DNA of 64,000 nucleotides, taken from assembly GCA_021851325.1 (NCBI GenBank), contig JAJZDZ010000008.1, forward strand, positions 62,001 to 126,000, written 5' to 3'. Every line of letters begins with the position of its first letter. Within the stretch, counting starts at the first letter, position 1. Shown piece after piece: positions 1 to 15,381 of this stretch. Below the pieces are notes generated by a model. The model ran no database searches and was not told the DNA's origin. It saw only the letters and a list, made by a program, of their open reading frames with translations. The position numbers were made by a program, and so were the translations under genes. The DNA is from Pseudomonadota bacterium. GTDB lineage: Bacteria > Pseudomonadota > Alphaproteobacteria > Micropepsales > Micropepsaceae.

Positions 1-2
1 TT

Positions 3-572
3 GCCAACGCTCTCGCATTTTATCTGCTCGCGACATCAGGTGCGATTGCCATTTCTGGTTTCTCGGCGCTGGTAAAGAGCGGAGTAAACGCACTACCGGC
101 AGGCGCGATATTCGTATTTACGAGCGTGCTAGTCGAACTCCTAAACGCCAAGTGGAAAGCCCGTCTTGTCTTTTGGAGGTGGCACCATCCCCTGCCCGGC
201 GCGAGAGCATTCTCCGAGTACGTAGACACGGATGATCGAATTGATACTAGCGAACTTCGCAGAAAAATCGGGGATTTCCCTACAAGCCCGAAAGACCAAA
301 ACTCTCGGTGGTATAAGTTATATCTTGCTTCGGAATCTGATCCGCGCATTCAACAGGTTCATAAGGGATACCTATTCACGAGAGACTATGCTGCGATCAG
401 TGTAATTTTCCTCGCCATCGGTGGCATAGCAATGTGGTGGCTCGTCTCCCATCTAACCGCGGCCGTTTATGACGCCGCGCTGATTGCTCAGTACCTCATA
501 GTTCGTCAATCGGCGAAGCATCATGGTGAGCGTTTTGTTACCTCGGTTCTTGCCCTCACTGCGGCACGGTAA
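3..572 (+). CDS. membrane protein, 5' end outside window
   Basis: The reading frame is open from the first bases of the window, so the gene begins upstream; the GTG at 126 is probably an internal valine. The visible part starts with a hydrophobic stretch (about 35 residues rich in A, L, I, F), then a polar middle of about 75 residues with an RRKIGDFPTSPKDQNSRWYK segment, then a second hydrophobic segment (AAISVIFLAIGGIAMWWLV) and a basic tail. This predicts an inner-membrane protein with a cytoplasmic loop. It ends 3 bases before the metallo-hydrolase gene, so the two are almost certainly co-transcribed. I do not recognise the family. Pairing a small membrane protein with a soluble enzyme in an island suggests a defence or toxin role, but this is inference. 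Confidence 0.7.
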   Translation, partial: ANALAFYLLATSGAIAISGFSALVKSGVNALPAGAIFVFTSVLVELLNAKWKARLVFWRWHHPLPGARAFSEYVDTDDRIDTSELRRKIGDFPTSPKDQNSRWYKLYLASESDPRIQQVHKGYLFTRDYAAISVIFLAIGGIAMWWLVSHLTAAVYDAALIAQYLIVRQSAKHHGERFVTSVLALTAAR

Positions 573-575
573 AGC

Positions 576-1568
576 ATGACAAAATTCCACTTTCTAAACG
601 TATGCGAGGGGGACTGCTCAATCATTGAACATGCGAGTAGCCGGATCACTGTGGTCGACGTCTGCAACGCTTCAGCCGAAGCTGATGCAACGAGTTCACG
701 AACCGCAAAAACCAGCCAAAGCACCGCCAGTGCATTAGGGAATTTCAATCAAAAAAAGTACCCAGAGAACCCGATCAACTACATGCTCGACCGGGGCATT
801 GATTCCATCCATCGTTTTATACTGACGCATCCTGACATGGATCATATGGATGGCATCAGGGCCCTATTCGCAGTGTTTGCGCCCACGAACTTCTGGGACA
901 GCGATAACAACTGTGAGAAAGAGTTCGAGGAGGGAGGGCGCTATAAAGAGGAGGATTGGAAGTTCTACAAGAAATTACGGGACGAAGGATCGGGTAGCGA
1001 TCCCAAACGGCTCTGCTTATTTTCCGGTGGGAAGGGGCATTATTACAATGATCCAAAAAAGGAAGGAAGCGGGCACGATGGTCTGCATATCCTGGCGCCT
1101 ACAAAGCGCCTACTCGCTGACGCGAACGCGTCAGGAGAACATAACGATGCGTCGTATGTCCTTCTCTATCGAAGCAAAGGGGGGCGTATCTTGCTCGCGG
1201 GCGACTCGCATGACAGTAGTTGGGAGCACGTTCTCAAAAAGCATGCCGACGATATTAAGGACGTTGATATTCTCATTGCGCCTCATCATGGAAGGGACTC
1301 GGAGAGAGATTATGCGTTTTTGGATGTCGTAAATCCGACTATTACATTTTTTGGGAACGCGAGGTCTGAACATCTCGCATATGATGCTTGGAACAGTCGC
1401 GACCTCCCATTCATAACCAACAACCAAGCGGGCAGCATGATTGTCGACACGAGCACAAAGCCAATGTCCCTCTACGTTACAAACAGAGTGTTTGCTGAAA
1501 GATTTTATAGCGAGACGTTTTTCTCTGATGAGTTCGGCGGTTACTACATCGGCGACATTGCCCGTTAA
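576..1568 (+). CDS. ComEC-like metallo-beta-lactamase-fold hydrolase
   Basis: Soluble 330-residue protein of the MBL fold. The metal-binding motif HPDMDHMDG (HxDxDH type, about residues 88-96) matches the version seen in the ComEC/Rec2 hydrolase domain. Further conserved points are ILLAGD about residue 210 and the APHHG motif about residue 235, which in this branch supply later metal ligands. There is no signal peptide and there are no membrane helices; the membrane part may be supplied by the preceding gene. The ATG lies 3 bases after that gene's stop, supporting an operon of two. Relatives of this branch cut phosphoester or nucleic-acid substrates; the substrate here is unknown. The position next to a membrane protein in an island hints at defence, which is inference. 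Confidence 0.8.
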   Translation: MTKFHFLNVCEGDCSIIEHASSRITVVDVCNASAEADATSSRTAKTSQSTASALGNFNQKKYPENPINYMLDRGIDSIHRFILTHPDMDHMDGIRALFAVFAPTNFWDSDNNCEKEFEEGGRYKEEDWKFYKKLRDEGSGSDPKRLCLFSGGKGHYYNDPKKEGSGHDGLHILAPTKRLLADANASGEHNDASYVLLYRSKGGRILLAGDSHDSSWEHVLKKHADDIKDVDILIAPHHGRDSERDYAFLDVVNPTITFFGNARSEHLAYDAWNSRDLPFITNNQAGSMIVDTSTKPMSLYVTNRVFAERFYSETFFSDEFGGYYIGDIAR

Positions 1569-1701
1569 GTGGAAAGATTAAGATCTTATAACGAGGAAGA
1601 GTTTGACTCGCGGTCAAAAAGTGCCGCCTAGCGCGATTGTTTGCGACCGTCGATGATGGCTAGCGGTCGGCCGATCATTACAAACCCATAGCATTCCGCC
1701 T

Positions 1702-1926
1702 ATGCACAACAACAAAGCGCTCGGACTTATCCGCCTCACCGACGATGTCCACCGCAAGGAGATTGAGGAGAACCTGCAGGTCTGTCTCGACGACCTCTAC
1801 GGACTGGTTACCGCCGTCGAGAAGAACATCGACCAGTTCGATGGACTCGTGAATCGGATTCTCTATGGCGTGCCGTTTAGTGGCCCGGTTCGTAGCCGGG
1901 GCGCGAGCGACCGCCTGACACTCTAG
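1702..1926 (+). CDS. small repeated protein, 74 aa, copy A
   Basis: Unrecognised 74-residue protein with a close paralogue at 3564-3788; about 40 residues are identical. Shared features are an N-terminal NxKALGxIRxTD segment, a charged helical middle with CxDDLY and KNxDQxDGL, and a YGVPF motif followed by an R-rich tail ending DRLxx. The profile is mostly helical, acidic, without signal peptide or membrane segment. Conservation of the frame, length and C-terminal motif in two diverged copies shows it is a real gene. It sits inside the duplicated module, and no co-transcribed gene follows. It could be a regulator, an antitoxin-like protein or a factor for module movement; none of these is shown by the sequence. 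Confidence 0.75.
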   Translation: MHNNKALGLIRLTDDVHRKEIEENLQVCLDDLYGLVTAVEKNIDQFDGLVNRILYGVPFSGPVRSRGASDRLTL

Positions 1927-1964
1927 TGCGCGCTTAGCGCACCGACCCGACTCGCCGTCGGGTC
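1927..1964 (+). terminator. double hairpin after 74-aa gene, copy A
   Basis: Two inverted repeats directly follow the stop: TGCGC/GCGCA (1927-1941) and GACCCGAC/GTCGGGTC with a 5-base loop (1944-1964). No T-run follows, so this may be a transcript-stabilising or attenuating structure instead of a classic terminator. The second hairpin is kept in copy B at 3803-3823 with a changed loop (TCGCC versus TCTTC), which supports selection on the stem. Confidence 0.6.
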
Positions 1965-1995
1965 ACGCACCAGGTTTAGACTCGTATTACGACAC

Positions 1996-2041
1996 AAAAC
2001 TTGCCGTGTGACCCTTCTCGGGATGGTATTCGAGCTTTTGC
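1996..2041 (+). other. conserved untranslated block, copy A
   Basis: 46 bases matching 3885-3930 at 41 positions without gaps. The block starts AAAACTTG, contains CGTGTGACC and TCGGGATGGTA and ends CTTTTGC. It has no shared reading frame with a start, so it is more likely a functional RNA or DNA-binding/recombination sequence than coding. Confidence 0.6.
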
Positions 2042-2159
2042 GCGCGAAGCACTCGCCATTCTCATGACGGATGCCGATACAGAGCGGCGCGAGCCGCTCA
2101 AACGCCCCGCGAACGACAACGGCGATGCCGTAATGGTTGCCTGAAGTCCCCGAAGTCCC

Positions 2160-2615
2160 TCAAGTCCTAGGGCGGCTTACTATCGAGCAAGCGCACTCGT
2201 TTCGTATCGCATCGATGAACTCTGACGCAAGTAACTGGTGCCACGGGAGGAATAGCGGCTCAGGGAGGTTATCAAAACTCACCCAGCGAAGCTCGACGAA
2301 TTTATCCGGCTCTCGGATCTGCGGACTGCCGCCAGCGAAATCGCTCAACATCCATATGGTAATGTAGTGCTTGCCTTCAGTGGGAAAGCGATCATTGGTG
2401 AGCGCGCCAAAGCGTATATTTTTAATTGCGACGCCGGTCTCTTCCTCAACCTCACGCCGCGCGGTGTCCTGCAATGATTCACCAAACTCAAGATGGCCGC
2501 CGGGGACCGACCAGGTGCCGTCCCCATGTGCGTTCTTGCGCTGGCCGAAAAGAAACATGCCGTCTTTGAAGACGAATACGCCGACGCCTACACGCACGAG
2601 GGGATGATCTGCCAT
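2160..2615 (-). CDS. Nudix hydrolase (MutT/NUDT15-like)
   Basis: 151-residue Nudix protein. The Nudix box is complete at about residues 39-61: GGHLEFGESL, then REVEEETG, giving the metal-binding glutamates. The N-terminus VRVGVGVFVFKDG and the motif GTWSVPGGH are typical of nucleoside-diphosphate-X hydrolases such as NUDT15/MutT. It likely hydrolyses a nucleoside triphosphate or nucleotide sugar; substrate unknown. The last codons run into the right edge of repeat module A, and the TGA stop is supplied by that edge, so the C-terminal tail has probably been changed by joining to the module. It lies 48 bases downstream of the 243-residue gene on the same strand and may share its transcript. Confidence 0.9.
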   Translation of the reverse strand: MADHPLVRVGVGVFVFKDGMFLFGQRKNAHGDGTWSVPGGHLEFGESLQDTARREVEEETGVAIKNIRFGALTNDRFPTEGKHYITIWMLSDFAGGSPQIREPDKFVELRWVSFDNLPEPLFLPWHQLLASEFIDAIRNECACSIVSRPRT

Positions 2616-2663
2616 GATTGAGAATTATATCTCAAGCGTGAGGGCTCAACCTCATGTACCCTG

Positions 2664-3395
2664 CTAGTTTCCTCCGCTTGATACGGTGGCCAGATACGCA
2701 TCTACGATATCCCAGGTAGACATAAAGAGCTTGGCCCTCTCGTCGGATGTCATGCTCGAAACGTCACCGTGCCGGAGAGGATCCGCGGCGTCTTTAATTT
2801 TGATGACTTCTGTCTTCTGAACGCCAGCCACGTCACGAAACTTCATCCACTGTTCGTTGTCGCCTTTCTCCAACAATCCATAGCGGCTTGCACAATGCTT
2901 GCGCAATGACTCGATCGCCCGATAGCAATAGAATGCTGTGTCATCCGCATGCTTCATCGCCGACGCTAGATCGTTAAAGCAGCGCGTGAGATAGACACCA
3001 TCTGGCCCGATGGCCTTATCTGCCAAAGCATTTAAGGCGAGGTTGGGGTCCACGGAGGCACACCGCTTCTCCAAGCAAGGGATCCCTATGCCGAACACGT
3101 AATCTACGTTCCGCGCGGGGTTCAACACCCGATCGATCTCGATTTCGTATGCATAGCCCTTCAGATAGGCAAGCATGGCGATGTGATTTGTAACTACCGT
3201 CTTGACCATATTTTTAAGGTCGAATATGTCCCAGACGTGATCCGTCTCCACCCAGACCGCCATCTGGTTGCAGATTATGCTTACGTGCACCTTACAAGGA
3301 ATTCCTGTGCCTAAGTGGGAGACGCCGATCGTAAAATCGAGAGATAAGCAGGCGCGTTCGGGTCTAACCACACCACTGAAAAGATACTTTTCCAT
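2664..3395 (-). CDS. unknown protein, 243 aa
   Basis: I do not recognise this family. It is a soluble protein with no signal peptide. The N-terminal half alternates hydrophobic and polar residues like a beta-rich domain (FSGVVRPERACLSLDFTIGV; CKVHVSIICNQMAVWVETD). The C-terminal half is helical, with a RAIESLRKHC segment and a final helix WDIVDAYLATV. A similar layout occurs in proteins of accessory islands annotated only as hypothetical. It starts at the ATG at 3393-3395, about 80 bases from the left edge of module B, and is followed by the Nudix gene on the same strand. Low overall GC relative to the right part of the window agrees with island DNA. Confidence 0.65.
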   Translation of the reverse strand: MEKYLFSGVVRPERACLSLDFTIGVSHLGTGIPCKVHVSIICNQMAVWVETDHVWDIFDLKNMVKTVVTNHIAMLAYLKGYAYEIEIDRVLNPARNVDYVFGIGIPCLEKRCASVDPNLALNALADKAIGPDGVYLTRCFNDLASAMKHADDTAFYCYRAIESLRKHCASRYGLLEKGDNEQWMKFRDVAGVQKTEVIKIKDAADPLRHGDVSSMTSDERAKLFMSTWDIVDAYLATVSSGGN

Positions 3396-3563
3396 GCTGA
3401 TGTTCTAGGACTTGTGTTCGGCTTAGTGTGCCATGTCCAATGCTTTTGTCTAGGCGTCAAAATCGGACGTAGGGACAGAAAGTGCCGCCTAGCGCGATCG
3501 GTTCGCTCGCTCGATGATGGAGGCGGATTGGCCGATCCTTACAAGCGATAACCCCTATCCGTT

Positions 3564-3788
3564 ATGAACAACGACAAAGCCCTCGGCATCATCCGCTACA
3601 CGGATGCGGAGCACCGCGAGGAGATCGAGAAGAATTTCGACCGCTGCTTCGATGATCTGTATGCAATCATCGACGGCGTGCGGAAGAACGTCGATCAGCT
3701 CGACGGACTCCTGAGCCGAGTGTTCTATGGCGTCCCCTTCGGCGACCGCCTGCACGGTCGCGGTACCGGTGACCGCCTGAGCATCTAG
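3564..3788 (+). CDS. small repeated protein, 74 aa, copy B
   Basis: Paralogue of the protein at 1702-1926, with the same length and about 40 of 74 residues identical. The start ATG, the KALGxIRxTD segment, CFDDLY, KNVDQLDGL and YGVPF are shared. Substitutions fall mainly between similar residues (L/I, L/F, V/I, E/D), as expected for selection on a helical fold. No signal peptide or membrane segment. Role unknown; see copy A. Confidence 0.75.
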   Translation: MNNDKALGIIRYTDAEHREEIEKNFDRCFDDLYAIIDGVRKNVDQLDGLLSRVFYGVPFGDRLHGRGTGDRLSI

Positions 3789-3802
3789 CGCGCACGCGCG
3801 CG

Positions 3803-3823
3803 GACCCGACTCTTCGTCGGGTC
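3803..3823 (+). terminator. hairpin after 74-aa gene, copy B
   Basis: Perfect 8-bp stem GACCCGAC/GTCGGGTC with a 5-base loop, 15 bases after the stop. Same stem as at 1944-1964 but a different loop. No T-run follows, so efficiency as a terminator is uncertain. Confidence 0.55.
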
Positions 3824-4089
3824 ACAAACCAGGTTAGCCCCACAGTTCAGGACGTGAAGAATTTCAGGACTTGACGAGCCTATAAAAACTTGGCGTGTGA
3901 CCTTTGTCGGGATGGTAGTCGAACTTTTGCACTATGTGCGTTCGAGCTCATGTACGCAGCAGCAAAGGAAGTCGGTGCGAATGACAACATAACCGATGCA
4001 GCCAAATATACTGCCGCATGAAGTCCCCGAAGTCCCTCTAGTCCACAGACTACAATAGACACCTCTTGAGGCGGTGTCATGGCCGGATT

Positions 4090-5526
4090 TCAACTAACCA
4101 GCATCAAAAAGCGTTCCCGCAACGCTGACCAAGCTGAGAATGTTGGCTCACTTCTCCGCACGTTCACCAATGTCGCGAGGTCATCATCGTCAAGTGCGAT
4201 TACGTATCCTCTTCCATCGCTAGCAGTATCCCTACATCGCTGCAAAAACTTCTCTTTGTCAACGAATGAGCGACAAACGAGAATCCCAACTTGTCCCCGA
4301 CTCCGTGAAAAGCGACCTGAAATCTGATCCAGTTCCGGATTTCCTACTTCTCTCCCATAATTCTTACATTCAACAAATATGAGTGGTGCAGTGTAATGAG
4401 TGGCGAGCCATTGAAAGAACCCCTCTGTGGCCATGTTGGTGTAGGTGATGTCGATGCGTTTACGACCGTCATGTATCTCGTGTTGCACGTTAGGAAATAC
4501 CAATACGGGATAGAAAAGCGCTGATAACAACGCCTCAACGGCCCTTTCATATTGAGACGCTTCGTTCGGTCCATGAACAACGGCCTTGACTGTGTTCAGA
4601 AGATCATCCCAGTCAGGACGTGCATCTGCGCCTTCAACTTCTGCTATTTCTTCATGTTGAAGTGCCAGGTGGGGTTTGTCCCTTTTTGCTTTCCGATATT
4701 TTTCAAGCACTTCGGGGTACTTTAGGGTTTCGCGAACAATTGTTGTTTTCCCCGCTCCATATTTTTCTATAAGCTTCTTCTTGGTAACTCGTCGATTCTT
4801 GTTCTTTAGCAGCTCGACAAGGCCTGAATTCGCATCGAGCTCTACTTGGCGTAGATGTTCGAGAAGGTAATGCCGATAATACTCTTCCGTGTCGTACTCG
4901 AGGTGGTGGCGGACGATTGCTTTGGGAACCAATAGAAGCTTCCCAGAGGTGGTCATGGGAAGGTGAGTAAATCCTGTTGACCACGACCGGGAACCGCTAT
5001 CCCATAGAGGACCGGACGCGACCCCTTCCTGAAGAGGCAGTCCGTATTGAGTCGCCATTTCCTGTGTGTATCGAATTAGCGGACCACGAATAATATTGGT
5101 TGCTATGTCCGAGACTATGTCGACGCTTATTCCTTCGACCATTAGAACCGTATCTTCCAGATCCTTAAGAAGACCGCTTCTTGCTGCAACGCTACGGCTC
5201 AATGCCCCCCACACGTCGTGAGCAGAACTGCTACCCAATGCACGCCCCCGAGATCGTCCCTGCGACAAGCCAAGATGTGTTTCATTTGGCTCCCGCAATG
5301 CACGAAGTAATGCTTCAGCCGATGATTGATTGCCGGCCTTGATATGCGACAGGATGGTTTCAAAGAAGTTTTGTACAAGATGAACGCATTCATTCCCCCA
5401 ATCCGAAGACAAGAGCAGGAGCGCTCGCGGACTGATGAATAGCGGCGTGTCGTTTGTCACGTCGACATCTACAAAATCGAGTGTCGGCTGGGATCGATCT
5501 AACTTGAAGTATTTCGATACTCTCAT
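4090..5526 (-). CDS. PD-(D/E)XK nuclease-like protein, 478 aa
   Basis: Large soluble protein whose last third looks like a restriction-endonuclease fold: KRIDITY (about residue 366) followed some 27 residues later by IFVECKNYG, giving the D ... ExK active-site pattern, then a helix with Q (LDQISGRF) and a strand GQVGILVCRSF. The first 250 residues are mainly helical with no motif I know; the middle has a charged stretch of K and E. The fusion of an unknown sensor-like half with a nuclease half, as a single gene in an island, resembles standalone defence proteins. That role is inference. It begins at the ATG at 5524-5526, and its 3' end is 46 bases from the right edge of module B. Confidence 0.75.
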   Translation of the reverse strand: MRVSKYFKLDRSQPTLDFVDVDVTNDTPLFISPRALLLLSSDWGNECVHLVQNFFETILSHIKAGNQSSAEALLRALREPNETHLGLSQGRSRGRALGSSSAHDVWGALSRSVAARSGLLKDLEDTVLMVEGISVDIVSDIATNIIRGPLIRYTQEMATQYGLPLQEGVASGPLWDSGSRSWSTGFTHLPMTTSGKLLLVPKAIVRHHLEYDTEEYYRHYLLEHLRQVELDANSGLVELLKNKNRRVTKKKLIEKYGAGKTTIVRETLKYPEVLEKYRKAKRDKPHLALQHEEIAEVEGADARPDWDDLLNTVKAVVHGPNEASQYERAVEALLSALFYPVLVFPNVQHEIHDGRKRIDITYTNMATEGFFQWLATHYTAPLIFVECKNYGREVGNPELDQISGRFSRSRGQVGILVCRSFVDKEKFLQRCRDTASDGRGYVIALDDDDLATLVNVRRSEPTFSAWSALRERFLMLVS

Positions 5527-5633
5527 AAGAAAGACTCTTTAGATCAACATTAAATTAGCACTTTGCGAGCATCTGGCTACCTCCTACGTAGTTAAGAATG
5601 CTCGGTTGAAGTGGAATCTTGACTCCCAGTCAA

Positions 5634-5649
5634 AAAGTGCCGCCTAGCG
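5634..5649 (+). repeat. third copy of module left edge
   Basis: The left-edge sequence AAAGTGCCGCCTAGCG occurs again 30 bases before the VirD4-like ATPase gene. The bases just upstream (TTGACTC, then GTCAA) also match those upstream of copy A, but the sequence after it differs and there is no 74-residue gene. It therefore looks like the point where a module, or a recombination event at the edge, joined unrelated DNA. Confidence 0.7.
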
Positions 5650-5679
5650 TGGCGAGGGTCCGCAGGTGACACTTGGCAC

Positions 5680-6855
5680 ATGCGCGACGAACATGCCGCA
5701 TCGCTTTTTGCCCGCACCAATTTCCATGCCACCAATTGCCTCTTTGGCATTCGCCAGGCGGACCGCCTCTCGCATCTCTATATCATTGGCAAGACAGGGG
5801 TGGGCAAGTCCACGCTTATGGAAGTCCTGGCGCGCCAAGACCTGGAAACTGGTCGGGGGTTTGCGGTCATCGATCCTCATGGTGATCTTGTAGAAAGGAT
5901 CGCTGAAGAGTGGGGCGCCGGAGATCCCGAACGCGTCGTATACCTGAATGCCCCGGATCACACCTGTCCGTTTGGGTACAATCCCCTTCGCAACGTGCGC
6001 GACGACAAAATTCCACTTGCCGTCTCCGGCTTCCTCGAGACCCTAAAGAAGCTCTGGCCTGATGCTTGGGGCGTCCGTATGGAGCATGTTCTTCGGAATA
6101 CGCTCTATGCGCTCCTAGAGCAGGACGATGCACGGCTCCCCGATATCCTTCACCTTTATGCTGACGAGACGTATCGGAAAGCAATCACCGCGCACATCCG
6201 AAACGATACGGTCCGTCGCTTTTGGCGCTACGAATTCGAACACTACCACTTTCGTCAGAAAGCGGATGCCGTTGCGCCGATCCAGAACAAGCTTGGAGCA
6301 CTTCTCGCCGACCCGAGACTCTATCGCATCCTGGTCGAGCCAGAACGAGATATTCACATCCGCTCATTGATGGATGACGGGAAGGTATTGCTGGTCAACC
6401 TGTCCAAGGGACAGCTTGGGGAAGACAGCGCCCTTATTCTCGGAAGTCTGCTTGTCTCGACCATCGGCCTTGCGGCCTTTAGCCGGGCCGACAGGCTACC
6501 TGAACAGCGCCGGCCATTCTTTCTCTATGTCGATGAATTTCAGAACTTCACAACCCTCATGTTCGCCAACATGATGAGCGAGCTCAGAAAGTATGGCGTT
6601 GGCCTGACCATCGCGAATCAATATTTCCATCAGCTTGAGCCGGATATCCGCCATGCCGTCCTCGGCAACGCCGGTACATTGGTCTCCTTCCGGGTGGGGC
6701 CGGAGGACGCGTCCATCCTGGCCAAAGAGTTTCAGCCAAAATTCGACACCGCGGATCTGCTTAACCTTCCCAACCACAGCATCTACTTGAAGCTCATGAT
6801 TGATGGCATGCCGAGCCTGCCATTCAGTGCAGACGTAGAAATTGCTCTATTATAA
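5680..6855 (+). CDS. VirD4/TraD-like DNA-pumping ATPase
   Basis: 391-residue ATPase of the VirD4/TraG/HerA-FtsK class. Walker A is GKTGVGKST (about residues 36-44), followed by FAVIDPHGDL; Walker B is LYVDEFQNF (about residues 281-289). The C-terminal third has GNAGTLVSFRVG and KEFQPKF, found in TraM-recognition type coupling proteins. There are no N-terminal membrane helices, unlike full VirD4, so it resembles the short soluble forms common in alphaproteobacterial islands. No other conjugation gene is visible nearby. The frame is open back through the repeat edge at 5634, so an upstream part may have been lost. A second copy of its last 43 codons lies at 12389-12517, proving rearrangement. 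Confidence 0.8.
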   Translation: MRDEHAASLFARTNFHATNCLFGIRQADRLSHLYIIGKTGVGKSTLMEVLARQDLETGRGFAVIDPHGDLVERIAEEWGAGDPERVVYLNAPDHTCPFGYNPLRNVRDDKIPLAVSGFLETLKKLWPDAWGVRMEHVLRNTLYALLEQDDARLPDILHLYADETYRKAITAHIRNDTVRRFWRYEFEHYHFRQKADAVAPIQNKLGALLADPRLYRILVEPERDIHIRSLMDDGKVLLVNLSKGQLGEDSALILGSLLVSTIGLAAFSRADRLPEQRRPFFLYVDEFQNFTTLMFANMMSELRKYGVGLTIANQYFHQLEPDIRHAVLGNAGTLVSFRVGPEDASILAKEFQPKFDTADLLNLPNHSIYLKLMIDGMPSLPFSADVEIALL

Positions 6856-6983
6856 GAACGCTCATGACTGCCAAGGTACCCGTCAAACATTTGGCGATGG
6901 AGTGCAATATCCCCGTTGGCGTTTGATGCATTCAGGCGTGGGAACGCTACAGAGCCTCTGAGACCCGCGACGGATTTAAGTAC

Positions 6984-7048
6984 AATTAACTTCAAGACTT
7001 TTAGCGCGCTTTGTGCCAAAGTTCGCAGATCATCTCGATGAAATGCAC
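6984..7048 (+). repeat. 65-bp island repeat, copy 1
   Basis: Ungapped match to 8941-9005 at about 48 of 65 positions. The best conserved part is the last 31 bases (7018-7048), starting AAAGTTCG and containing CATCTCGATGA and TGCAC. Its end supplies a possible -35 box (TGCACA) for the gene at 7079. Confidence 0.7.
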
Positions 7049-7072
7049 ATATAGTTTCGCTTGAGGTATAAT
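7044..7072 (+). promoter_or_regulatory. probable sigma-70 promoter
   Basis: TATAAT at 7067-7072 is a perfect -10 box. TGCACA at 7044-7049, 17 bases upstream, matches four of six positions of TTGACA and is the tail of the island repeat. Transcription would start at about 7079, the ATG of the next gene, so the message may be leaderless. Confidence 0.5.
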
Positions 7073-7078
7073 TCGGAA

Positions 7079-7825
7079 ATGGAAGACTTCGGCGCGAAAG
7101 TGCTCATCTCAGGAGACTTCGTTCCCCAGGACGCGATAGTTGCACTTCAACCATCAAACCGTCAAATCGATAACGAGACCGAAAATCAAATCGAGAGAGT
7201 GTGGAGAGAAAAGGTGGCAGGCGCAGAACGGAACGGCAAGCTTCTGTATAATGGTCTCTCGTATCGCCTCAATTCGTACAGAGTCGTTGATGATAAATTG
7301 TTCCTCGACCTTGGGACTCTCGAATACAAGGTGCGCGATGGCTTGATAGCTGTCCCGCGCTATCTTTCATTGCCCGAGTCCTATTGGCGTAAAGGGCTAT
7401 ATTCAACGGCAACGGTCAGGACCAGTGATGCACAGTACCTAATGGTCGAACTGTCGGGCAAATCCATGAATACGAACACCATCGACCTGATAGGCGGTGT
7501 GGTTGAAACGGAGCCAAAAATTCATGATGGCAACGGAATTTTCGAGTCATTTCTGAGGGAACTTGAGGAAGAGGCGCTGGTCGCTCGCGAAGAGGTAGAG
7601 TCGTGCAGGCTTAAATCGCTTATGCAAGAACGCCGCGGGAATATCGCTCTCTATTTTGAAGTGTTACTCAGGCTAAGCTCGGCAGACTTAAGACAACGAT
7701 ACGCGGGAGCAGCGCTTGAGAACGACATTAAGGCCGTAGCCTTCTTCAACCGTGACGAATATCTTGAGACTCTTCGCCGCCACAACCCCAACAAGCAGCT
7801 CGTTGGACAGGTTCTGGCTATTTAA
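7079..7825 (+). CDS. Nudix-fold protein with degenerate box
   Basis: 248-residue protein starting at the ATG at 7079 (a TTG at 7061 is an alternative but overlaps the promoter). About residues 135-165 hold a stretch like a Nudix box: IGGVVETEP, then SFLRELEEEALV, which keeps GG and the REUxEE core but has an irregular spacing. It ends with a domain containing FFNRDEYLETLRRHNPN. The N-terminal 100 residues are unfamiliar. Similar two-part Nudix-like proteins are known in defence-rich islands as hypothetical proteins. It stands alone between copies 1 and 2 of the 65-bp repeat. Hydrolase activity is uncertain because of the irregular box. Confidence 0.65.
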   Translation: MEDFGAKVLISGDFVPQDAIVALQPSNRQIDNETENQIERVWREKVAGAERNGKLLYNGLSYRLNSYRVVDDKLFLDLGTLEYKVRDGLIAVPRYLSLPESYWRKGLYSTATVRTSDAQYLMVELSGKSMNTNTIDLIGGVVETEPKIHDGNGIFESFLRELEEEALVAREEVESCRLKSLMQERRGNIALYFEVLLRLSSADLRQRYAGAALENDIKAVAFFNRDEYLETLRRHNPNKQLVGQVLAI

Positions 7826-7906
7826 GGAAAACTAGGGGCTTATCGGCCAAGAATCGTTCTAACCTCGTTCCATAAGGCGCACATTCAGGGACCTGCAGTG
7901 AGGTAA

Positions 7907-7940
7907 GCAAAAAAGCGCCGCCCGATGGCGAAGGGCGGGG
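7907..7940 (-). terminator. intrinsic terminator for 42-aa gene
   Basis: On the minus strand a CCGCCC/GGGCGG stem with a 9-base loop is followed by CGC and six T. It lies 25 bases after the stop of the small membrane protein gene and points to real transcription of that gene. Confidence 0.75.
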
Positions 7941-7964
7941 AGGCGTGATGATCGTAGGCGAAGG

Positions 7965-8093
7965 TCAGTGGTGGGGCTGTGAATCGGGATCGGCTTTTTG
8001 AGCGCGGAGAATCAAATAGATGAGTCCAACCGCAACCAAAGCAATCACCAGTTCGCCCGCCAATTCGTGAACGGGGACTCCAAAGATCCGCAT
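7965..8093 (-). CDS. small membrane protein, 42 aa
   Basis: Short gene with a good ribosome site (GGGAG, 6 bases before ATG) and its own terminator. The product begins MRIFGVPVHELAGELV, continues with one hydrophobic helix of about 17 residues (ALVAVGLIYLILR) and ends in a polar tail with DPDSQPHH. It therefore looks like a single-pass inner-membrane miniprotein. The function is unknown; in islands such proteins are often toxins of type I systems or small partners of larger enzymes. No antisense RNA gene could be recognised by eye. Confidence 0.6.
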   Translation of the reverse strand: MRIFGVPVHELAGELVIALVAVGLIYLILRAQKADPDSQPHH

Positions 8094-8158
8094 GTGTATC
8101 TCCCAATCAAGATGCGCGCGAATTATACCACTTCGGTCGAGGTGTCCTTAGTTGACGC

Positions 8159-8223
8159 GGCAAGCTTGAGCGCAACCAGTGTGTTCTCAACCAAAGTTCG
8201 AACATCGTCTCGATGAGGTGCAC
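8159..8223 (+). repeat. 65-bp island repeat, copy 2
   Basis: Second copy. The 31-base core at 8193-8223 differs from the core of copy 3 at one position only (G for A), while the first 34 bases are weakly alike. It lies between the 42-residue membrane protein gene and the 3' end of the gene at 8271. Confidence 0.7.
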
Positions 8224-8270
8224 AAATGGGGACTGCCAGTTTCAAAATACCTCCTCGAGGCAAACTTTTT

Positions 8271-8879
8271 CTATGCCGCCATTTGCGCGGTGCTTGGCAG
8301 CCATGCCAAGAAAGCTGTCTCCGGCTCATTCTGACGGAGAAACCAAAGAGCTCTTAATGTACCCTCCAACAACAAGGGGGCGCGGTGTTCGCCGTCGTCG
8401 AAGTCGGGCAAGACTATGCCTGGCTCCGCTTGTACGAAGGAAAGACTGGTTGGAATTTTTGCGAGCGCCGATCGCGGATGTGAATCTGCAAACGGGCCCT
8501 GCATCGACGCCAATTTTGCCAACGGATCCCAGTCCAGACCAGGCACGCAAAGCGTCCTAAGCAAATCGTCCCTCGACAATGGGCGGCACGTAAATGTCGG
8601 GTGTTCCCAGATAGCTGGCAGCAGGCCGCGCCGTCCAGGGTGCGCTTCAATCGCTGCTGAGAGAGTCCTGCGGTCACTCTCCGTCAGATCCTCGAATGGA
8701 ACGCCATTTCCAGCGCTCACAAAAAGCTCGCCAAAAACAAGGGCCCGATAGGTATGGCTGAAGCGGCTAGAGCTCAGCTCGGCGTAAGCCCACCTTTCCT
8801 CAAGAACTCTGTTTGAAATGGTCTGCCCCAGCATGCTCAAGGTATAGCATGCACCACAGTGCTCCGAAACAGGCGCCAA
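8271..8879 (-). CDS. unknown protein, up to 202 aa
   Basis: I do not recognise this protein. The frame is long and ends in a stop shortly before repeat copy 2. Two starts are possible: the ATG at 8879, or the ATG at 8834 giving MLGQTISNRVLEERWAYAEL. The product is soluble, with aromatic residues (RFSHTYRALVFGELF), a proline-rich middle (LPAIWEHPTFTCRPLSRDDL) and a C-terminal LLLEGTLRALWFLRQNEPE helix. Other frames on both strands are also fairly open here, which lowers confidence, but the amino-acid make-up is balanced only in this one. It lies between repeat copies 2 and 3 as a one-gene cassette. Confidence 0.5.
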   Translation of the reverse strand: MAPVSEHCGACYTLSMLGQTISNRVLEERWAYAELSSSRFSHTYRALVFGELFVSAGNGVPFEDLTESDRRTLSAAIEAHPGRRGLLPAIWEHPTFTCRPLSRDDLLRTLCVPGLDWDPLAKLASMQGPFADSHPRSALAKIPTSLSFVQAEPGIVLPDFDDGEHRAPLLLEGTLRALWFLRQNEPETAFLAWLPSTAQMAA

Positions 8880-8940
8880 TCAATTATCAACTTTGGGGAC
8901 GTTACGGACTCCCTGGCTTGCCTATGCCACCACGCTCCGC

Positions 8941-9005
8941 AACTAACTTGAACACGCTTAATGCTCTCTCCCCGAAAGTTCGAACATCATCTCGATGAGG
9001 TGCAC
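8941..9005 (+). repeat. 65-bp island repeat, copy 3
   Basis: Third copy in the same orientation as copies 1 and 2. The 31-base core is at 8975-9005. It runs directly into an inverted partial copy (see 8979-9026). It precedes the 3' end of the TrlF-type gene. Confidence 0.75.
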
Positions 9006-9026
9006 CTCATCGAGATGATGTTCGAA
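8979..9026. repeat. 48-bp perfect palindrome
   Basis: The 27 bases from TTCGAA (8979) to GTGCAC (9005) are followed by their exact reverse complement, overlapping in GTGCAC, to TTCGAA at 9026. Each arm is 21 bases around a 6-base self-complementary centre. The left arm is the end of repeat copy 3; the right arm is an inverted copy cut just past TTCGAA. It would form a strong cruciform or RNA hairpin. Confidence 0.9.
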
Positions 9027-9106
9027 TAAGCAGGGTGACATACACGCTGAAGGCCCACGCAGGCGGCGCTAATAGCTCATTGAGAGGTTTCTGACGTCCC
9101 CGGTGT

Positions 9107-12043
9107 CTACTGTATCGCCCTATACAAGTCGACAATTCGCCACCGGCCTTCGCGTATCTTGAATGGTTGCTTCCCCCCCTCTAGTAATCGCACAGCTTGG
9201 TCTCTAGTACCCGTTGCCCCATCCACATGCTCCAGCGAGCCGCTTAGGTAAGTAATTCTCGCGTGTGGCTCTCCGGGAGACTTTTTGCTGAAAGCGACAA
9301 TGACCTGTTCCGCATCCGTTGTGGCTACCAAATTTGGATTATGCGTGACGAGTATGACCTGACGCATGCGTTTCGCTCGGCGAAGAAACGGTACCAAGGC
9401 CTCAAAGATAGAGGAGTTATCAAGATTGCCTTCTGGTTGGTCAATGATAAGCGGTCTACGGTCGGTGTGGTCCATTGCGAGATATAGAATTAGAAGTACA
9501 ATCCCGCGCGTACCTGGCGAGAGGGCATCAAGCTCTGTGCCCTGATATTTTAGACCGTATTCTAGGCGAATATACTCCGGAGAGAACAACCAATCGTATA
9601 ATTTTTGGCGGGTTGCATGCGACACCAAGTGTCTGTCGGCTTTTACTCCGTCGATGGCCAGTTGTTTCAGAACCCCTTCTAGTTCCCTTCGAATATCTGC
9701 CTTACTTCCAAACCTCCAGGCGGAGGCTAGGCCACGATCCAACTGCTTGCCGGTATCCTCTTGACTGAGATCATTCCCCGCAGATCGACGCCGATCGAGT
9801 AAGTCGAGCCCTGTCTCAATCCATGACTTCGCGTCCGCCACCTGCCGCACGTTCAGTTCAAAGCCGGATTTTGTTCCATCTGATTCATCTGTGGCGATCA
9901 CGTCCGATAACGGCGCGTACATTGCCTCAAGCGCTGTTCGTTCCTCAGAAAGAACATCAAAATACGTTAGGTAGGCGGTCCACCTATCTTCTCGTCTCTT
10001 AGCAAGCGCAGTGCTCAAAGTCCCATCGATGCGATCAATTTCCCTAGTAAGTCGGACACTCTCGCTTTGCGCCTTCTCCTTTTGTTTTTGGAGTTCAATC
10101 AGCCTACTCCTTACCAGTTCATCAGTTGCTACCGACTGCTCGAGGGCCACAATTCGATGCTTTAGATCCACGATGGATTGTCCAGCAGGGGTGGGATTCT
10201 CAGCGTCTCCACGCAGGTCGTTCGCCTTATCGTCGACAATCTTCTCCAGATCATCGAGAAGTCCACTCGGATTTCCGGAAACCATCGGACGGAACTGTGC
10301 GACCTGCTCCTCGGTGAGGCCGAGCATTCTTAACTCGGCGGCCACTGCGTTAAACTGGTCATCAACGGTACGAAACAACCTTTGAACCCGTGCACGACCA
10401 TCAGAAATGGCCGTTTTTCGCTTGTTCAGCTCAGCGAGCTGTTCAGTCGCATTCTTCAGTAGCGTGCGCTCGGTCATAAGTTGTTCAGCAACATTCTGAT
10501 CAATCGACCCCTGAAGTTCTGGAAGCTGCTTGTCAATCGCGGCGATTGTCTTGGCAAGCTCTTCCTGCCGTGTCTGCTTCTGCGGCTTTGTAGCGATCTC
10601 ATTCTCCGTACGCACAATCTCGCTGTTCAGTTGAGATAGACGACCTCGAATTTCTGTTTTGTGCTCCTCTATCTGAGCAGTTTTAATGCGCCGAAGATCT
10701 TCAAATGAAGATGCCCCAAGGCGATCTGCCTCATCCAAATGGGAGAATATAACAGACTCAACTTCAGCAATAAGCTTTGCTCCCTTGAAGTCTTGCGAAC
10801 ACAGCTGTTCCACAAAATCCTGAGAGAGATACCTGACCTCCGGTCCCCTAGCCGGCGGTCGCATATGGAGGGCCGCCTCCGAGCGATGACCATCTTCCCA
10901 GTTCACCGCTACCCGCACGCCGTCGAGATAGGGTTCAGCCTTAGTGATAAATGACGACGTACTGCTTTCTCCGGTCCACGCTCCACACGAATAGGCAATC
11001 ATATCTGCTAGCGCGGTCTTCCCGGACCCCTTCTCGCCAATTACGGCGACGAGCCCTGGATTGAGTTTGATTGCAGGCGTGTCGAACCAGCTGTCGCCTC
11101 CGGTAATTGTAACGCCGCCAATTATTTTGCTCTTATCGAAAGCCGATGGCGGCGTTGGACCAATGTACACGCGGTCGTCAGGTTCGTAGAGTAGCTGACG
11201 TAGACCTTCGAAGGTAGGGTCCGCCTTAATCCAACAAAAGCGATCTTCTTCAGGTGCGAAAAGCTTTTCAGCGCTATGCGCATCTGAGCCATGAATACAC
11301 GGCATTATAGTACCCTTTTCGGCAACGATCGTTTCCGCAGAGTCAGAGCCGTTTCCAAGAAAGTACGCTCGATCCTTCGGATTTCCTGAAAAGATCATGT
11401 CGGCGAAGCGGTACATCTCTGCGCGCACCGCGGCAAATCCGGAATCTTTCGAAAGACCAGAAGCTCCATCCTTCGCGTTCGAGATGACGACGAGGGAATT
11501 TGCGGTTAGCCACCGATTGCTAGTGCGCCATTCGCGGAATTGCTCAAATGGCGGCTTGAAGGCGTTAATGCCCGCTCTAAGTTGCGATGAACTCTCGGTG
11601 GCTTTAGCGTTTACCTTTTGTCCCAACTTTCGCAGCTCCGTGGGAACACAGGAATAGGGGTCGCCATTGTAGCTAAAGGTAAGCTTTCCAAGCGCCTGTT
11701 CAATTTTTTCGACGTGCTCCGGGTCCTCTGGTGAGAGTAGCAGGTGTATGTTTACTGCCTTCCCGCCAGGTAATTCTGGCGTCATTCGGAATTCGATGTT
11801 TGGGAGAAGGAGATCGAATCCTCCAAGACGACCGCTTCGGTGGTAAGAGAGTATCTGTTTGTATCCTTCGATGGTGCAATAGTCGGTTATTCCCACAACT
11901 GAAACGCCGGCACCAGCAGTCTCTAACTCAGCGATGTAGGTATCCCAATCGTCAAATTCCTCGTAGAGAACGCTGGCTGGGGTATGGACATGGAGATCCC
12001 AACGTCGCCATTCGGAGCCTTTTGGATATCGTGCGTTTGCCAT
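9107..12043 (-). CDS. PHP-domain SMC-like ATPase (TrlF type)
   Basis: 978-residue protein with two parts. Residues 1-300 are a PHP-type metal-dependent phosphoesterase: DLHVHTPAS (16-24), GITDYCTI, and later HGSDAHS, all expected metal ligands. From about residue 300 an SMC/ABC-type ATPase follows: Walker A GEKGSGKTA (about 336), a long coiled coil (about 430-700) rich in E, Q, K and L, and Walker B LIIDQPEGNLDN (about 867) with a following VTHNPN switch. The architecture matches the PHP-ATPase family called TrlF. Likely role: nucleic-acid sensing coupled to a phosphoesterase, probably defence; the biochemical target is not known to me. It is a single gene, AT-richer than its hsd neighbours. 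Confidence 0.85.
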   Translation of the reverse strand: MANARYPKGSEWRRWDLHVHTPASVLYEEFDDWDTYIAELETAGAGVSVVGITDYCTIEGYKQILSYHRSGRLGGFDLLLPNIEFRMTPELPGGKAVNIHLLLSPEDPEHVEKIEQALGKLTFSYNGDPYSCVPTELRKLGQKVNAKATESSSQLRAGINAFKPPFEQFREWRTSNRWLTANSLVVISNAKDGASGLSKDSGFAAVRAEMYRFADMIFSGNPKDRAYFLGNGSDSAETIVAEKGTIMPCIHGSDAHSAEKLFAPEEDRFCWIKADPTFEGLRQLLYEPDDRVYIGPTPPSAFDKSKIIGGVTITGGDSWFDTPAIKLNPGLVAVIGEKGSGKTALADMIAYSCGAWTGESSTSSFITKAEPYLDGVRVAVNWEDGHRSEAALHMRPPARGPEVRYLSQDFVEQLCSQDFKGAKLIAEVESVIFSHLDEADRLGASSFEDLRRIKTAQIEEHKTEIRGRLSQLNSEIVRTENEIATKPQKQTRQEELAKTIAAIDKQLPELQGSIDQNVAEQLMTERTLLKNATEQLAELNKRKTAISDGRARVQRLFRTVDDQFNAVAAELRMLGLTEEQVAQFRPMVSGNPSGLLDDLEKIVDDKANDLRGDAENPTPAGQSIVDLKHRIVALEQSVATDELVRSRLIELQKQKEKAQSESVRLTREIDRIDGTLSTALAKRREDRWTAYLTYFDVLSEERTALEAMYAPLSDVIATDESDGTKSGFELNVRQVADAKSWIETGLDLLDRRRSAGNDLSQEDTGKQLDRGLASAWRFGSKADIRRELEGVLKQLAIDGVKADRHLVSHATRQKLYDWLFSPEYIRLEYGLKYQGTELDALSPGTRGIVLLILYLAMDHTDRRPLIIDQPEGNLDNSSIFEALVPFLRRAKRMRQVILVTHNPNLVATTDAEQVIVAFSKKSPGEPHARITYLSGSLEHVDGATGTRDQAVRLLEGGKQPFKIREGRWRIVDLYRAIQ

Positions 12044-12094: not shown

Positions 12095-12330
12095 CTTTAC
12101 CATTTTGCCTACGCTCGCGTCTCGACAGTAAAGTGGGCCCAAGTCAAGGTCTCGCTTGCCGAACAGCACGAAGCCATTGCCGAGTTCACGGAGATGTACG
12201 ACCTCCCGATATCTCAGTGGGTTGAGCATAGAGACGGCGGCTCGGACGGGCCGCCTTTTGTTTAAGGACATGATGGCCCGCCTCGGCCGTGACGAGGCCC
12301 CTGGAGTCCTCATTCACGAGATCGACCGCG
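12095..12330 (+). pseudogene. large serine recombinase, broken 5' part
   Basis: Two frames together give the N-terminal resolvase domain. The first frame (12095-12265) reads FAYARVSTVK, then VSLAEQHEAIAEF and ISQWVEHRDGGSDGPPF, the standard YxRVST start followed by SLxxQ and a QWxE strand; it ends in TAA. The +1 frame takes over at about 12258 with LFKDMMARLGRDEAPGVLIH and EIDR, the next conserved segment (catalytic-domain IHKIDR in relatives). There is no start codon and nothing of the large C-terminal domain. This is a dead recombinase remnant at the junction between TrlF and the restriction operon. Confidence 0.8.
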
Positions 12331-12704: not shown

Positions 12705-14162
12705 ATGTTTGAACAGACTTTCAAGAATATCGACGACGTGCTGTGGAAGGACGCCGGGTGCACGAGCGAACTCGACTACACCGAGCAGAGCTCCTGGCTT
12801 CTTTTCCTCAAATATCTGGACGAGCTGGAGGGCGAGCGCGCGGTCGAGGCCAAGCTCGCCGGCAAGAAGTATAACTACATCCTCGATGCGCCCTATCGCT
12901 GGGCGAACTGGGCCGCACCCAAAGGCAAGGACGGCAAAATCGATCACAACCGCGCGCTCTCAGGCGACGATCTCAGGGATTTCGTCAATCAGAAGCTCTT
13001 CCCTTATCTGGAGGGTTTCAAGCGGCGCGCCAGCGGGCCCAACACCATCGAATACAAAATCGGCGAGATTTTCGGCGAGATTAAGAACAAGATCCAGAGC
13101 GGCTACAATCTGCGCGAGGTGATCGACTATGTCGATGAGCTGCGCTTCGCCACCCAGACGGAGAAGCACGAGCTTTCCCACCTCTACGAAGCCAAGATCA
13201 AGAATATGGGCAATGCCGGGCGCAATGGCGGGGAGTATTATACGCCGCGCCCACTGATCCGCGCCATCATCGAGGTGGTCCATCCGAAAATCGGCGAGCG
13301 CATCTATGACGGTGCGGTAGGGTCCGCGGGCTTCCTCTGCGAGGCGTTCGACTATCTGCAGCGCACCAATCTCAAGCGCACTACGGCGCAGGACAAGATT
13401 CTTCAGGAGCGCACCTTCTATGGCAAAGAGAAGAAGTCACTCGCCTACGTTATCGGCACGATGAACATGATCCTGCACGGCATCGAAGCGCCGAACATCA
13501 TCCACACCAACACGCTCACAGAGAATCTCGCTGATATTCAGGAGAAGGATCGCTACGATGTGGTCTTGGCTAATCCGCCCTTCGGAGGCAAAGAGCGGCC
13601 GGAGGTGCAACAGAACTTCCCTATCCGCTCCGGCGAGACTGCGTTCCTGTTCTTGCAGCACTTCATCAAGATACTGAAGGCGGGCGGGCGCGCCGGCGTT
13701 GTCATCAAGAACACCTTCCTATCGAACACCGACAATGCTGCGGTCAGCCTGCGCAAGCTCCTGCTGGAAAGCTGTAATCTGCACACCGTGCTGGATTGTC
13801 CGGGCGGCACGTTCCAGGGTGCAGGTGTGAAGACCGTCGTGCTGTTCTTCGAGAAGGGTGCGCCGACGCGCAAAATCTGGTTCTACCAGCTCGATCCCGG
13901 TCGCAGCCTTGGCAAAACCAACGCACTGAACGACGATGATCTCGCGGAATTCGTGAAGCTGCAAAAGACCTTTGAGGACTCGCCTAAGAGCTGGAGCGTT
14001 GACATCAAGGATGTCGACGCCAAGACCTTCGACCTCTCCGTGAGGAATCCGAATGGCGGAGAGGGGGAGGCCCTCCGCAGCCCGGAAGAGATTCTGGGTG
14101 AGATCGCCGTGCTCGATTCTGAGAGCGCGAAGGTGCTGGCTAAAATCCGGGCGTTGCTATGA
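12705..14162 (+). CDS. hsdM: type I restriction system methyltransferase HsdM
   Basis: 485-residue N6-adenine DNA methyltransferase. The N-terminal HsdM helical domain (MFEQTFKNIDDVLW) is followed by NGGEYYTPRPLI, the SAM-binding segment YDGAVGSAGFL (about residue 200) and the catalytic NPPFGG motif (about residue 290). It methylates the recognition site set by HsdS and is needed for both modification and cutting. The final ATGA overlaps the start of hsdS, so the two are translationally coupled. Length fits the family, and the motifs are intact. GC is higher than in the island genes to the left, suggesting a different source. Confidence 0.96.
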   Translation: MFEQTFKNIDDVLWKDAGCTSELDYTEQSSWLLFLKYLDELEGERAVEAKLAGKKYNYILDAPYRWANWAAPKGKDGKIDHNRALSGDDLRDFVNQKLFPYLEGFKRRASGPNTIEYKIGEIFGEIKNKIQSGYNLREVIDYVDELRFATQTEKHELSHLYEAKIKNMGNAGRNGGEYYTPRPLIRAIIEVVHPKIGERIYDGAVGSAGFLCEAFDYLQRTNLKRTTAQDKILQERTFYGKEKKSLAYVIGTMNMILHGIEAPNIIHTNTLTENLADIQEKDRYDVVLANPPFGGKERPEVQQNFPIRSGETAFLFLQHFIKILKAGGRAGVVIKNTFLSNTDNAAVSLRKLLLESCNLHTVLDCPGGTFQGAGVKTVVLFFEKGAPTRKIWFYQLDPGRSLGKTNALNDDDLAEFVKLQKTFEDSPKSWSVDIKDVDAKTFDLSVRNPNGGEGEALRSPEEILGEIAVLDSESAKVLAKIRALL

Positions 14163-15373: not shown

Positions 15374-15381
15374 TAATTCGC

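What the first reader, a model, noticed from the sequence alone, without database searches (positions are those of the whole stretch)
1618..4043. A ~560-bp module with a 74-aa gene occurs twice, with better-conserved untranslated parts than protein
Copies at 1618-2168 and 3479-4043 share a 16-base left edge, a similar leader, a 74-residue protein (about 40 identities), a hairpin, a 46-base block with 41 identities, and a right edge of spaced hexamers. Between them lie unrelated minus-strand cargo genes. The order head plus cargo, repeated, looks like a modular unit able to pick up or move genes, or a regulatory head. I know of no described element with this make-up.
Basis: partly seen in the sequence, partly recalled or inferred. 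Interest (0 to 1): 0.82.

Follow-up and report, generated by a model that had tools for sequence, protein, structure and literature searches.

The report
Defence-gene cassettes inside a recombinase gene
The repeated module is the joint of a cassette array in which a serine recombinase appears to insert small cargo units, many carrying likely anti-virus genes, into the end of its own gene, giving itself a new tail each time.

Summary
The two copies are real, and the genome holds more: seven left edges, five 74-aa genes, and seven right parts, two of which are the 3' ends of large serine recombinase genes. So the "untranslated" right part is a recombinase tail; the 46-base block holds the presumed recombination site. 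Reading: cassettes of [tail + iterons + cargo + left edge + 74-aa gene + hairpin + site] inserted between a recombinase (ends 6.0 kb before the window) and a TraG/HerA-like ATPase, which are adjacent in five relatives.

Main support: a mismatch-free 5,037-bp tandem duplication whose junction maps to 7 bp (TGTGACC), although identical stretches of 22 and 26 bp lay nearby. Orphan tails recur beside 42-50% identical recombinases in two other families. At E 1e-5 the C-terminal segment recurs in 4 of 22 loci, other segments in 1 of 137. Selected cargo often matches anti-phage defence families, including Gabija and SIR2-HerA.

Function is inferred from sequence. Five of eight filled platforms show no second tail; the 74-aa protein's role is open. 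My paper searches found no such system.

The parts
1618..1633 (+). left edge (LE) copy 1 before the 74-aa gene
   Evidence: exact 16-mer, 7 copies in the genome, 5 before a 74-aa gene and 2 before the ATPase gene
1702..1926 (+). 74-aa gene, copy 1
   Evidence: ORF; 54% identical to copy 2, 86% to the C52 copy
1926..1964 (+). two hairpins just before the site
   Evidence: z -3.49 against shuffles
1996..2041 (+). 46-bp block with the presumed recombination site; crossover core TGTGACC at 2007-2013
2007..2144 (+). orphan recombinase tail (R4), open to a TGA followed by the iterons
   Evidence: CDPSRDGIRAFAREALAILMTDADTERREPLKRPANDNGDAVMVA*, translated from its identical copy R2
2142..2167 (+). 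9-bp iterons AAGTCCCyn after the tail
   Evidence: 25 of 26 identical to copy 2; similar repeats after recombinases of some relatives, read by eye
2160..2615 (-). cargo: NUDIX protein
   Evidence: Pfam NUDIX 1.8e-24; PADLOC PDC-S07 3.1e-11
2664..3395 (-). cargo: 243-aa protein
   Evidence: no Pfam family at 0.1, no PADLOC family at 0.01
3479..3494 (+). left edge copy 2
3564..3788 (+). 74-aa gene, copy 2
3789..3823 (+). two hairpins just before the site
   Evidence: z -3.19
3885..3930 (+). 46-bp block with the presumed site, core 3896-3902; right end of the duplication
3896..4021 (+). orphan recombinase tail (R5), 90.5 and 94.4% identical to the two C52 tails
4019..4044 (+). iterons
4090..5526 (-). 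cargo: Mrr-like restriction protein
   Evidence: Pfam Mrr_cat 1.6e-4, just over its cut-off; PADLOC PDC-M36A 1.6e-44
1..572 (+). cargo of the preceding cassette: rest of a 210-aa protein whose gene starts before the window
   Evidence: first copy L013:14903-15535; no Pfam or PADLOC family at 0.01
576..1568 (+). cargo of the preceding cassette: metallo-beta-lactamase-like protein
   Evidence: PADLOC PDC-M48B 1.1e-35; Pfam lactamase families only below cut-off
5634..5649 (+). left edge copy 3 before the ATPase gene
5680..6855 (+). TraG/TrwB/HerA-like ATPase closing the platform
   Evidence: Pfam TrwB_AAD_bind 1.3e-8, DUF87 3e-8; under 0.2 kb from the recombinase in 5 relatives
7015..7050 (-). 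weak inverted site-like tail (CAFHRDDLRTLAQ...)
   Evidence: nhmmer E 0.69, not significant by itself; translation; one repeat family with the next two
8192..8226 (-). inverted site with tail CAPHRDDVRTLVENTLVALKLAA...
   Evidence: nhmmer 4.3e-6
8974..9026 (.). inverted site (-, 6.2e-6) and + site (3.7e-4) sharing a perfect 48-bp palindrome, 8979-9026, centred on GTGCAC

Best explanation
A serine-recombinase cassette system whose landing site lies inside the 3' coding end of the recombinase gene. A cassette is [right half-site + replacement recombinase tail + iterons + cargo + LE + 74-aa gene + hairpin + left half-site]. Crossing over in TGTGACC between the site in the recombinase gene and the cassette's site inserts the cassette, gives the recombinase a new C-terminal tail and displaces the old tail and cargo downstream, so arrays grow at the recombinase end. 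Much cargo is probable anti-phage defence. Shown by sequence: the tails, the junctions, the variable cargo, empty platforms, recurrence in two other families. Inferred: that this recombinase does it, that cassettes pass through circles, and that the small gene next to the site (74-aa here) helps direct excision.
For: (1) All seven right parts in the genome align with recombinase 3' ends; six were translated and are open to a TGA followed by the iterons, the seventh (R4) is identical to one of them. (2) The duplicated unit is exactly 5,037 bp with 0 mismatches; its middle junction joins the left flank of site R5 to the right flank of R1 within the shared TGTGACC, although 22- and 26-bp identical stretches lay near (the 3 mismatches of the longer alignment are outside the unit). 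(3) At E 1e-5 the C-terminal 70 aa of the recombinase recur elsewhere in the locus in 4 of 22 loci, other segments in 1 of 137. (4) G125 and G150, two other families, have orphan tails whose identity starts at the matching position and is nearly perfect for about 60-65 bp, then falls. (5) Of 22 recombinase loci, 13 have the ATPase downstream on the same strand: 5 empty (under 0.2 kb) and 8 filled (1.2-11.7 kb). (6) The Arg codon in TCGAAC is CGA in 10 of 10 recombinases of the RxxxRT/RM type, against 11.7% of their Arg codons. (7) C91's last tail and ATPase are 90.5-94.4% identical to C52's, while its recombinase body is 73.1% and its present tail 61.5%: the older tail seems displaced to the far end. 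(8) Defence cargo.
Against: No activity or circle was seen. Multi-tail arrays were found in one genome (two arrays) and single orphan tails in two others. Five of 8 filled platforms (G013, G470, G212a, G212b, Sulfitobacter) show no second tail at E 0.05. Six of the 16 recombinases aligned lack TCGAAC, two of them in empty platforms (G078, G034). Within the tails, beyond the block, the two window copies are at background identity. Codon tests of coding selection on orphan tails are mixed: G150 7 synonymous / 3 non-synonymous codons, G125 5/11, G000 tails 5/5, 1/5, 6/5. The last slot has cargo directly before LE-ATPase, which pure insertion at the recombinase does not give; it needs a second event, perhaps at LE. 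The duplication could be an assembly loop. The CGA probability printed (5e-10) assumes independence that shared ancestry violates.
Confidence: 0.72

Rival explanations
1. Tandem accretion of whole mobile elements, each once with its own serine recombinase, at a shared site (as with SCC and ssrA islands), followed by loss of the inner recombinases; no specialised cassette.
For: Dehalococcoides islands accumulate in tandem and dsiB overlaps its attL; SCC-like elements use large serine recombinases at one gene end. In G150 the cassette end encodes a small protein resembling the one upstream of its recombinase (read by eye).
Against: No recombinase body segment was detected at E 1e-5 in the inner units of C91, C52, G125 or G150. 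The site is internal to a module (ArdC-like, RuvC-like, HTH, 435-aa, recombinase, ATPase; partly named by reading) and recombinase and ATPase are adjacent in empty relatives.
Confidence: 0.15
2. Homologous recombination between repeats, not site-specific recombination, shuffles the units; the conserved block is only coding sequence.
For: Repeats of about 150-370 bp exist in the array; the shared LE suggests exchange there too.
Against: The junction lies in 7 shared bases rather than in the 22- and 26-bp identical stretches; identity begins at the same position in G125 and G150; CGA conservation.
Confidence: 0.08
3. The 560-bp module is a regulatory head or a small mobile gene (74-aa) that moves itself; the recombinase tail was picked up by chance.
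For: The 74-aa gene and LE recur as a unit.
Against: Outside this genome the 74-aa protein was met only in G449 (identical DNA, L036) and G450 (L043), not in 60 relatives, in the other 384 of a class sample or in viral contigs, while a tail recurs without it in G125; AF2 gives one helix at modest confidence and Foldseek no match in PDB.
Confidence: 0.04

Closest known systems
Integrons (IntI, attI, attC cassettes)
   Same: A recombinase gene heads an array of cargo cassettes lacking a recombinase; newest apparently nearest the recombinase.
   Different: Serine, not tyrosine, recombinase; site inside the recombinase gene; cassettes carry a replacement recombinase end, often a small gene, and one to several cargo genes in either orientation. 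Integron knowledge is recalled, with listings seen.
Dehalococcoides ssrA islands (DsiB), PMC3146451 (passages)
   Same: Serine recombinase gene whose 3' end overlaps an att site and varies at the C terminus; tandem islands.
   Different: Target is ssrA and 16 of the islands carry an integration module; here the target is the recombinase gene and no inner unit was seen to carry one.
SCC/ECC elements (CcrAB, rlmH), PMC6222049 (passages)
   Same: Large serine recombinases; site in the 3' end of a gene; variable cargo.
   Different: Target is rlmH; recombinases travel in the element.
Mx8 phage integrase, PMC6070905 (passages)
   Same: attP within the integrase gene; integration makes a new 3' end.
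   Different: A phage integrating into the host chromosome (integrase recalled as tyrosine type); no cassette array in the passages seen.
SSV-type suicidal archaeal integrases, PMC8371274 (passages)
   Same: Recombination site within the integrase gene.
   Different: Tyrosine recombinases whose gene is fragmented by integration; here the frame is restored by the incoming tail.

Membership tests
Large serine recombinases | Resolvase + Recombinase + zinc-ribbon domains | tested here: met
   PF00239 6.6e-27, PF07508 2.2e-12, PF13408 1.1e-8, all over cut-off
Integrons | tyrosine integrase IntI | tested here: not met
   the recombinase heading the array is of the serine type
Integrons | attC sites recombined as folded single strands | not tested
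   no comparison with attC made
Integrons | cassettes inserted one after another beside the recombinase gene | tested here: inconclusive
   anatomy fits; activity not testable
SCC/ECC | insertion in the 3' end of rlmH | tested here: not met
   the site is in the recombinase's own 3' end
Dehalococcoides ssrA islands | insertion in ssrA | tested here: not met
   host tmRNA match lies on contig C8, apart from the arrays on C91 and C52
Suicidal integrases | integration leaves a split integrase gene | tested here: not met
   both G000 recombinase frames are intact, 523 and 518 aa, tails included
Insertion sequences | each unit carries its own transposase and terminal inverted repeats | tested here: not met
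   no transposase family among the unit proteins scanned; none of the 17 inverted pairs listed for 1-9000 joins unit ends

The most novel reading that the evidence does not exclude
A serine-recombinase counterpart of the integron, specialised in anti-phage defence cargo, in which the recombinase gene is its own landing pad: every capture rewrites the recombinase C terminus (often with an ssrA-like ANDN...AA end that may set its stability), and a small gene beside the cassette's site controls excision.
Probability: 0.5. Interest if true: 0.92.

Novelty: new variant of a known kind. Interest (0 to 1): 0.8.

Why it matters
Defence genes cluster and move between bacteria, and how they are collected is in large part open (general knowledge, not searched here). 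A recognisable site and recombinase would let one find defence cassettes by their tails, as attC finds integron cassettes, and could give a serine recombinase with a self-contained site for insertion of DNA. It also makes testable whether a recombinase that exchanges its own C terminus changes its activity or stability at each capture.

Tried and rejected
Left edge as a mobile-element end: the 16-mer search gave 29 stretches in genome contigs and 3 in viral contigs; by tblastn only L036 and L043 of these 32 held the 74-aa protein, and L036 the recombinase. By base count (my arithmetic) about 120 random hits could be expected in genome contigs, so the rest look like chance. Close relatives in viral contigs by recombinase and by 74-aa: none. 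Plasmids and phages gave only recombinases under 60% identity (plasmids best 45%, Sulfitobacter).

74-aa protein as a homologue of the small protein encoded just upstream of the recombinase: not supported (hhalign probability 1.7%, E 0.029). AF2 model mean pLDDT 71.5, one helix; no PDB match.

G212a/G212b as a natural cargo swap: rejected, they share cargo and differ in the recombinase after about 150 codons. ARAGORN did not find the host tmRNA in its locus; the tag was read by a motif scan of that locus. Weak second-tail hits in G004c44 and G160 (E 0.004, 0.012) were not pursued. Left out of the 22 loci: G039 (recombinase cut by the contig end) and the weaker matches G067, G016, G045 and G025:C193 (28-33%).

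Paper searches for a described system or its parts; titles and abstract starts of the listed papers seen, and passages of four papers. No bioRxiv is held.
Full report
Observation. Both copies are as described. The host genome (3.53 Mb, 103 contigs; window = contig C91:62001-126000) has seven exact copies of the left edge, five on C91 and two on C52, and five 74-aa genes. The left edge stands before each 74-aa gene and before both copies of an ATPase gene (window 5680-6855; the C52 copy is 91.7% identical in DNA). A similar string stands before the ATPase of some relatives such as G034 and G078 (by eye).

What the right part is. Upstream of the window C91 carries a 523-aa large serine recombinase (C91:54391-55962, ending 6.0 kb before the window; Resolvase, Recombinase and zinc-ribbon domains); C52 has a 518-aa relative. 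The seven right parts of the genome, two of them the ends of these genes and five orphans, align with each other. The six translated keep an open frame from the block to a TGA followed by the same 9-bp repeats; the seventh is an identical copy. So each cassette junction carries an alternative recombinase C terminus. Left flanks fall into a recombinase type and a cassette type, meeting the right parts at TGTGACC.

Where crossing over happens. C91 holds a tandem duplication of exactly 5,037 bp without a mismatch; the 3 mismatches of the longer alignment lie outside the unit. Its middle site, R3, has R5's left flank and R1's right flank. The only possible crossover interval is TGTGACC, 7 bp, although 22 identical bases begin 11 bp to the right and 26 more lie at the end of the tail. 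Homologous recombination would be expected to use the longer stretches. If the duplication is an assembly loop, the R3 junction still has to come from somewhere, for instance a circle in the sample; I cannot tell these apart. A perfect 48-bp palindrome at window 8979-9026 joins two right half-sites head to head at GTGCAC, as wrong-way recombination at a palindromic core would do (inference).

Arrangement. C91: recombinase - tail - cargo (metallo-beta-lactamase-like, 210-aa, metallo-beta-lactamase-like) - LE, 74-aa, hairpins, site - tail - cargo (NUDIX, 243-aa) - LE, 74-aa, site; the two units again; then tail - Mrr-like cargo - LE, ATPase. C52: recombinase - tail - two small minus-strand genes - LE, 74-aa, site - tail - 322-aa cargo - LE, ATPase. 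A low-coverage contig (L043, BP5.bin47) has the 5' end of a relative of the 322-aa cargo gene (92% over 283 bp, LE included), followed by LE and a 74-aa gene instead of the ATPase. The same cargo end is thus found with two different right neighbours.

Relatives. Of 100 related genomes (own included) 15 had a recombinase match at E 1e-20; of a class sample of 385, 6 at 1e-70, own included. I examined 22 loci: 2 from the own genome, 19 from relatives, 1 plasmid; dropped rows are named under Tried and rejected. Thirteen have the ATPase downstream on the same strand: empty in G007, G070, G004c44, G078 and G034; filled in C91, C52, G013, G125, G212a, G212b, the Sulfitobacter plasmid NZ_CP081110.1 and G470. 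Of the other nine, G150 has it upstream, G004c5 on the other strand, G066 and G020 only a 25% match, and the rest none in the stretch held, which in some ends early. Five further ATPase loci fetched have no close relative of this recombinase: G025b has a 27% relative with cargo, G034b a 597-aa protein that reads like another serine recombinase, and G028, G100 and G010 gave no match.

Orphan tails elsewhere. G125 (recombinase 49-50% identical): a 281-bp block, 77% identical to its recombinase end, begins at GTGAGCC between a Schlafen/AlbA_2 gene and a SIR2-HerA pair. G150 (42-43%): 106 bp, 90% identical, 2.6 kb downstream, after a HerA-like gene. In both a hairpin lies before the orphan site (z -7.5 and -4.2), and in G150 also a small gene resembling the one upstream of its recombinase (by eye). 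Internal control: cutting the 22 recombinases into 70-aa segments, the C-terminal one recurs in 4 of 22 loci at E 1e-5, the other segments 1 of 137 (own genome, window 12234-12329).

DNA constraint. In 10 of 10 recombinases of the RxxxRT/RM type the Arg codon is CGA inside TCGAA, against 11.7% CGA among their Arg codons. The other 6 of the 16 aligned lack it. Identity between gene end and orphan is nearly perfect over the first 60-65 bp in G125 and G150 and then drops.

Cargo. I chose proteins by position and size, not every ORF. PADLOC matches (E 0.01, 0.001 in the others): 4 of 9 cargo proteins of C91/C52, 7 of 10 of G125, G160 and G470, one of them weak, 6 of 9 of G066 and G072, 3 of 9 in a last set with G150, G498, G025b and window 7061-12043. 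They include Gabija genes (GajA 2.6e-270, GajB 4.2e-242), SIR2 4.8e-98 with HerA 3.8e-208, a type II restriction-modification pair and AbiEi/AbiEii. For G160, G066 and G072 neither a close ATPase nor a convincing orphan tail was found, so their cargo is only adjacent. Enrichment over other islands was not tested.

74-aa protein and tail ends. The 74-aa gene lies beside the site, as the small gene does in G150. A small gene also precedes each of the 22 recombinases (18 alignable with each other, A2). Because directionality factors of serine integrases can be small (recalled), I propose that role, but homology to A2 is not supported. The tails of this genome contain ANDN or ANDD and end in AA, VA or AV; a motif scan of the host tmRNA locus gives ANDNAMALAA, not confirmed by ARAGORN. 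A degron is possible; shared ancestry of the tails weakens the count.

Limits. Nothing was assayed. Five of eight filled platforms have no detectable second tail. Cargo directly before LE-ATPase needs a second event, perhaps at LE. Tests for coding selection on orphan tails are mixed.

Noticed in passing
window 1-3895 and C91:55822-60858: 5,037-bp tandem duplication of two cassettes without a mismatch (the window holds 3,895 bp of the second copy); real, or an assembly loop caused by circles.
   Followed up: partly
window 6983-9026: Three inverted site-like repeats with tails (one not significant alone) around genes at 7061-7825, 8271-8879 and 9107-12043, plus a perfect 48-bp palindrome at 8979-9026; looks like a second, inverted group of cassettes.
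   Followed up: partly
L043 650-730: A cassette end (LE, 74-aa, hairpin) joined exactly to the 3' end of a tRNA-Glu gene on a low-coverage contig of a 0.5-Mb bin; chimera or insertion at a secondary site.
   Followed up: partly
window 12234-12329: Fragment matching the N-terminal part of the recombinase (44% over 32 aa), a possible remnant.
   Followed up: no
window 12705-17697 and 20650-21768: ORFs that read like type I restriction-modification genes and a tyrosine integrase (by reading, not by search), the latter perhaps the integrase of the whole island.
   Followed up: no
L075 reversed, 7192-7273 (G004:C5): Core of the site duplicated in frame, 51 bp apart, inside a recombinase ORF.
   Followed up: no
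L092 and L093 (G212): Two copies of the platform in one genome with the same cargo, but recombinases alike only in about the first 150 codons.
   Followed up: partly
L119, L120, L121: The same ATPase next to quite different recombinases: one that reads like another serine recombinase (G034b), a 27% relative with cargo and a tail-like site after the ATPase (G025b), a tyrosine-type gene by reading (G028).
   Followed up: partly
upstream of each of the 22 recombinase genes examined: A small gene, in most loci ending within -44 to +3 bp of the recombinase start; no Pfam family for the 18 aligned.
   Followed up: partly
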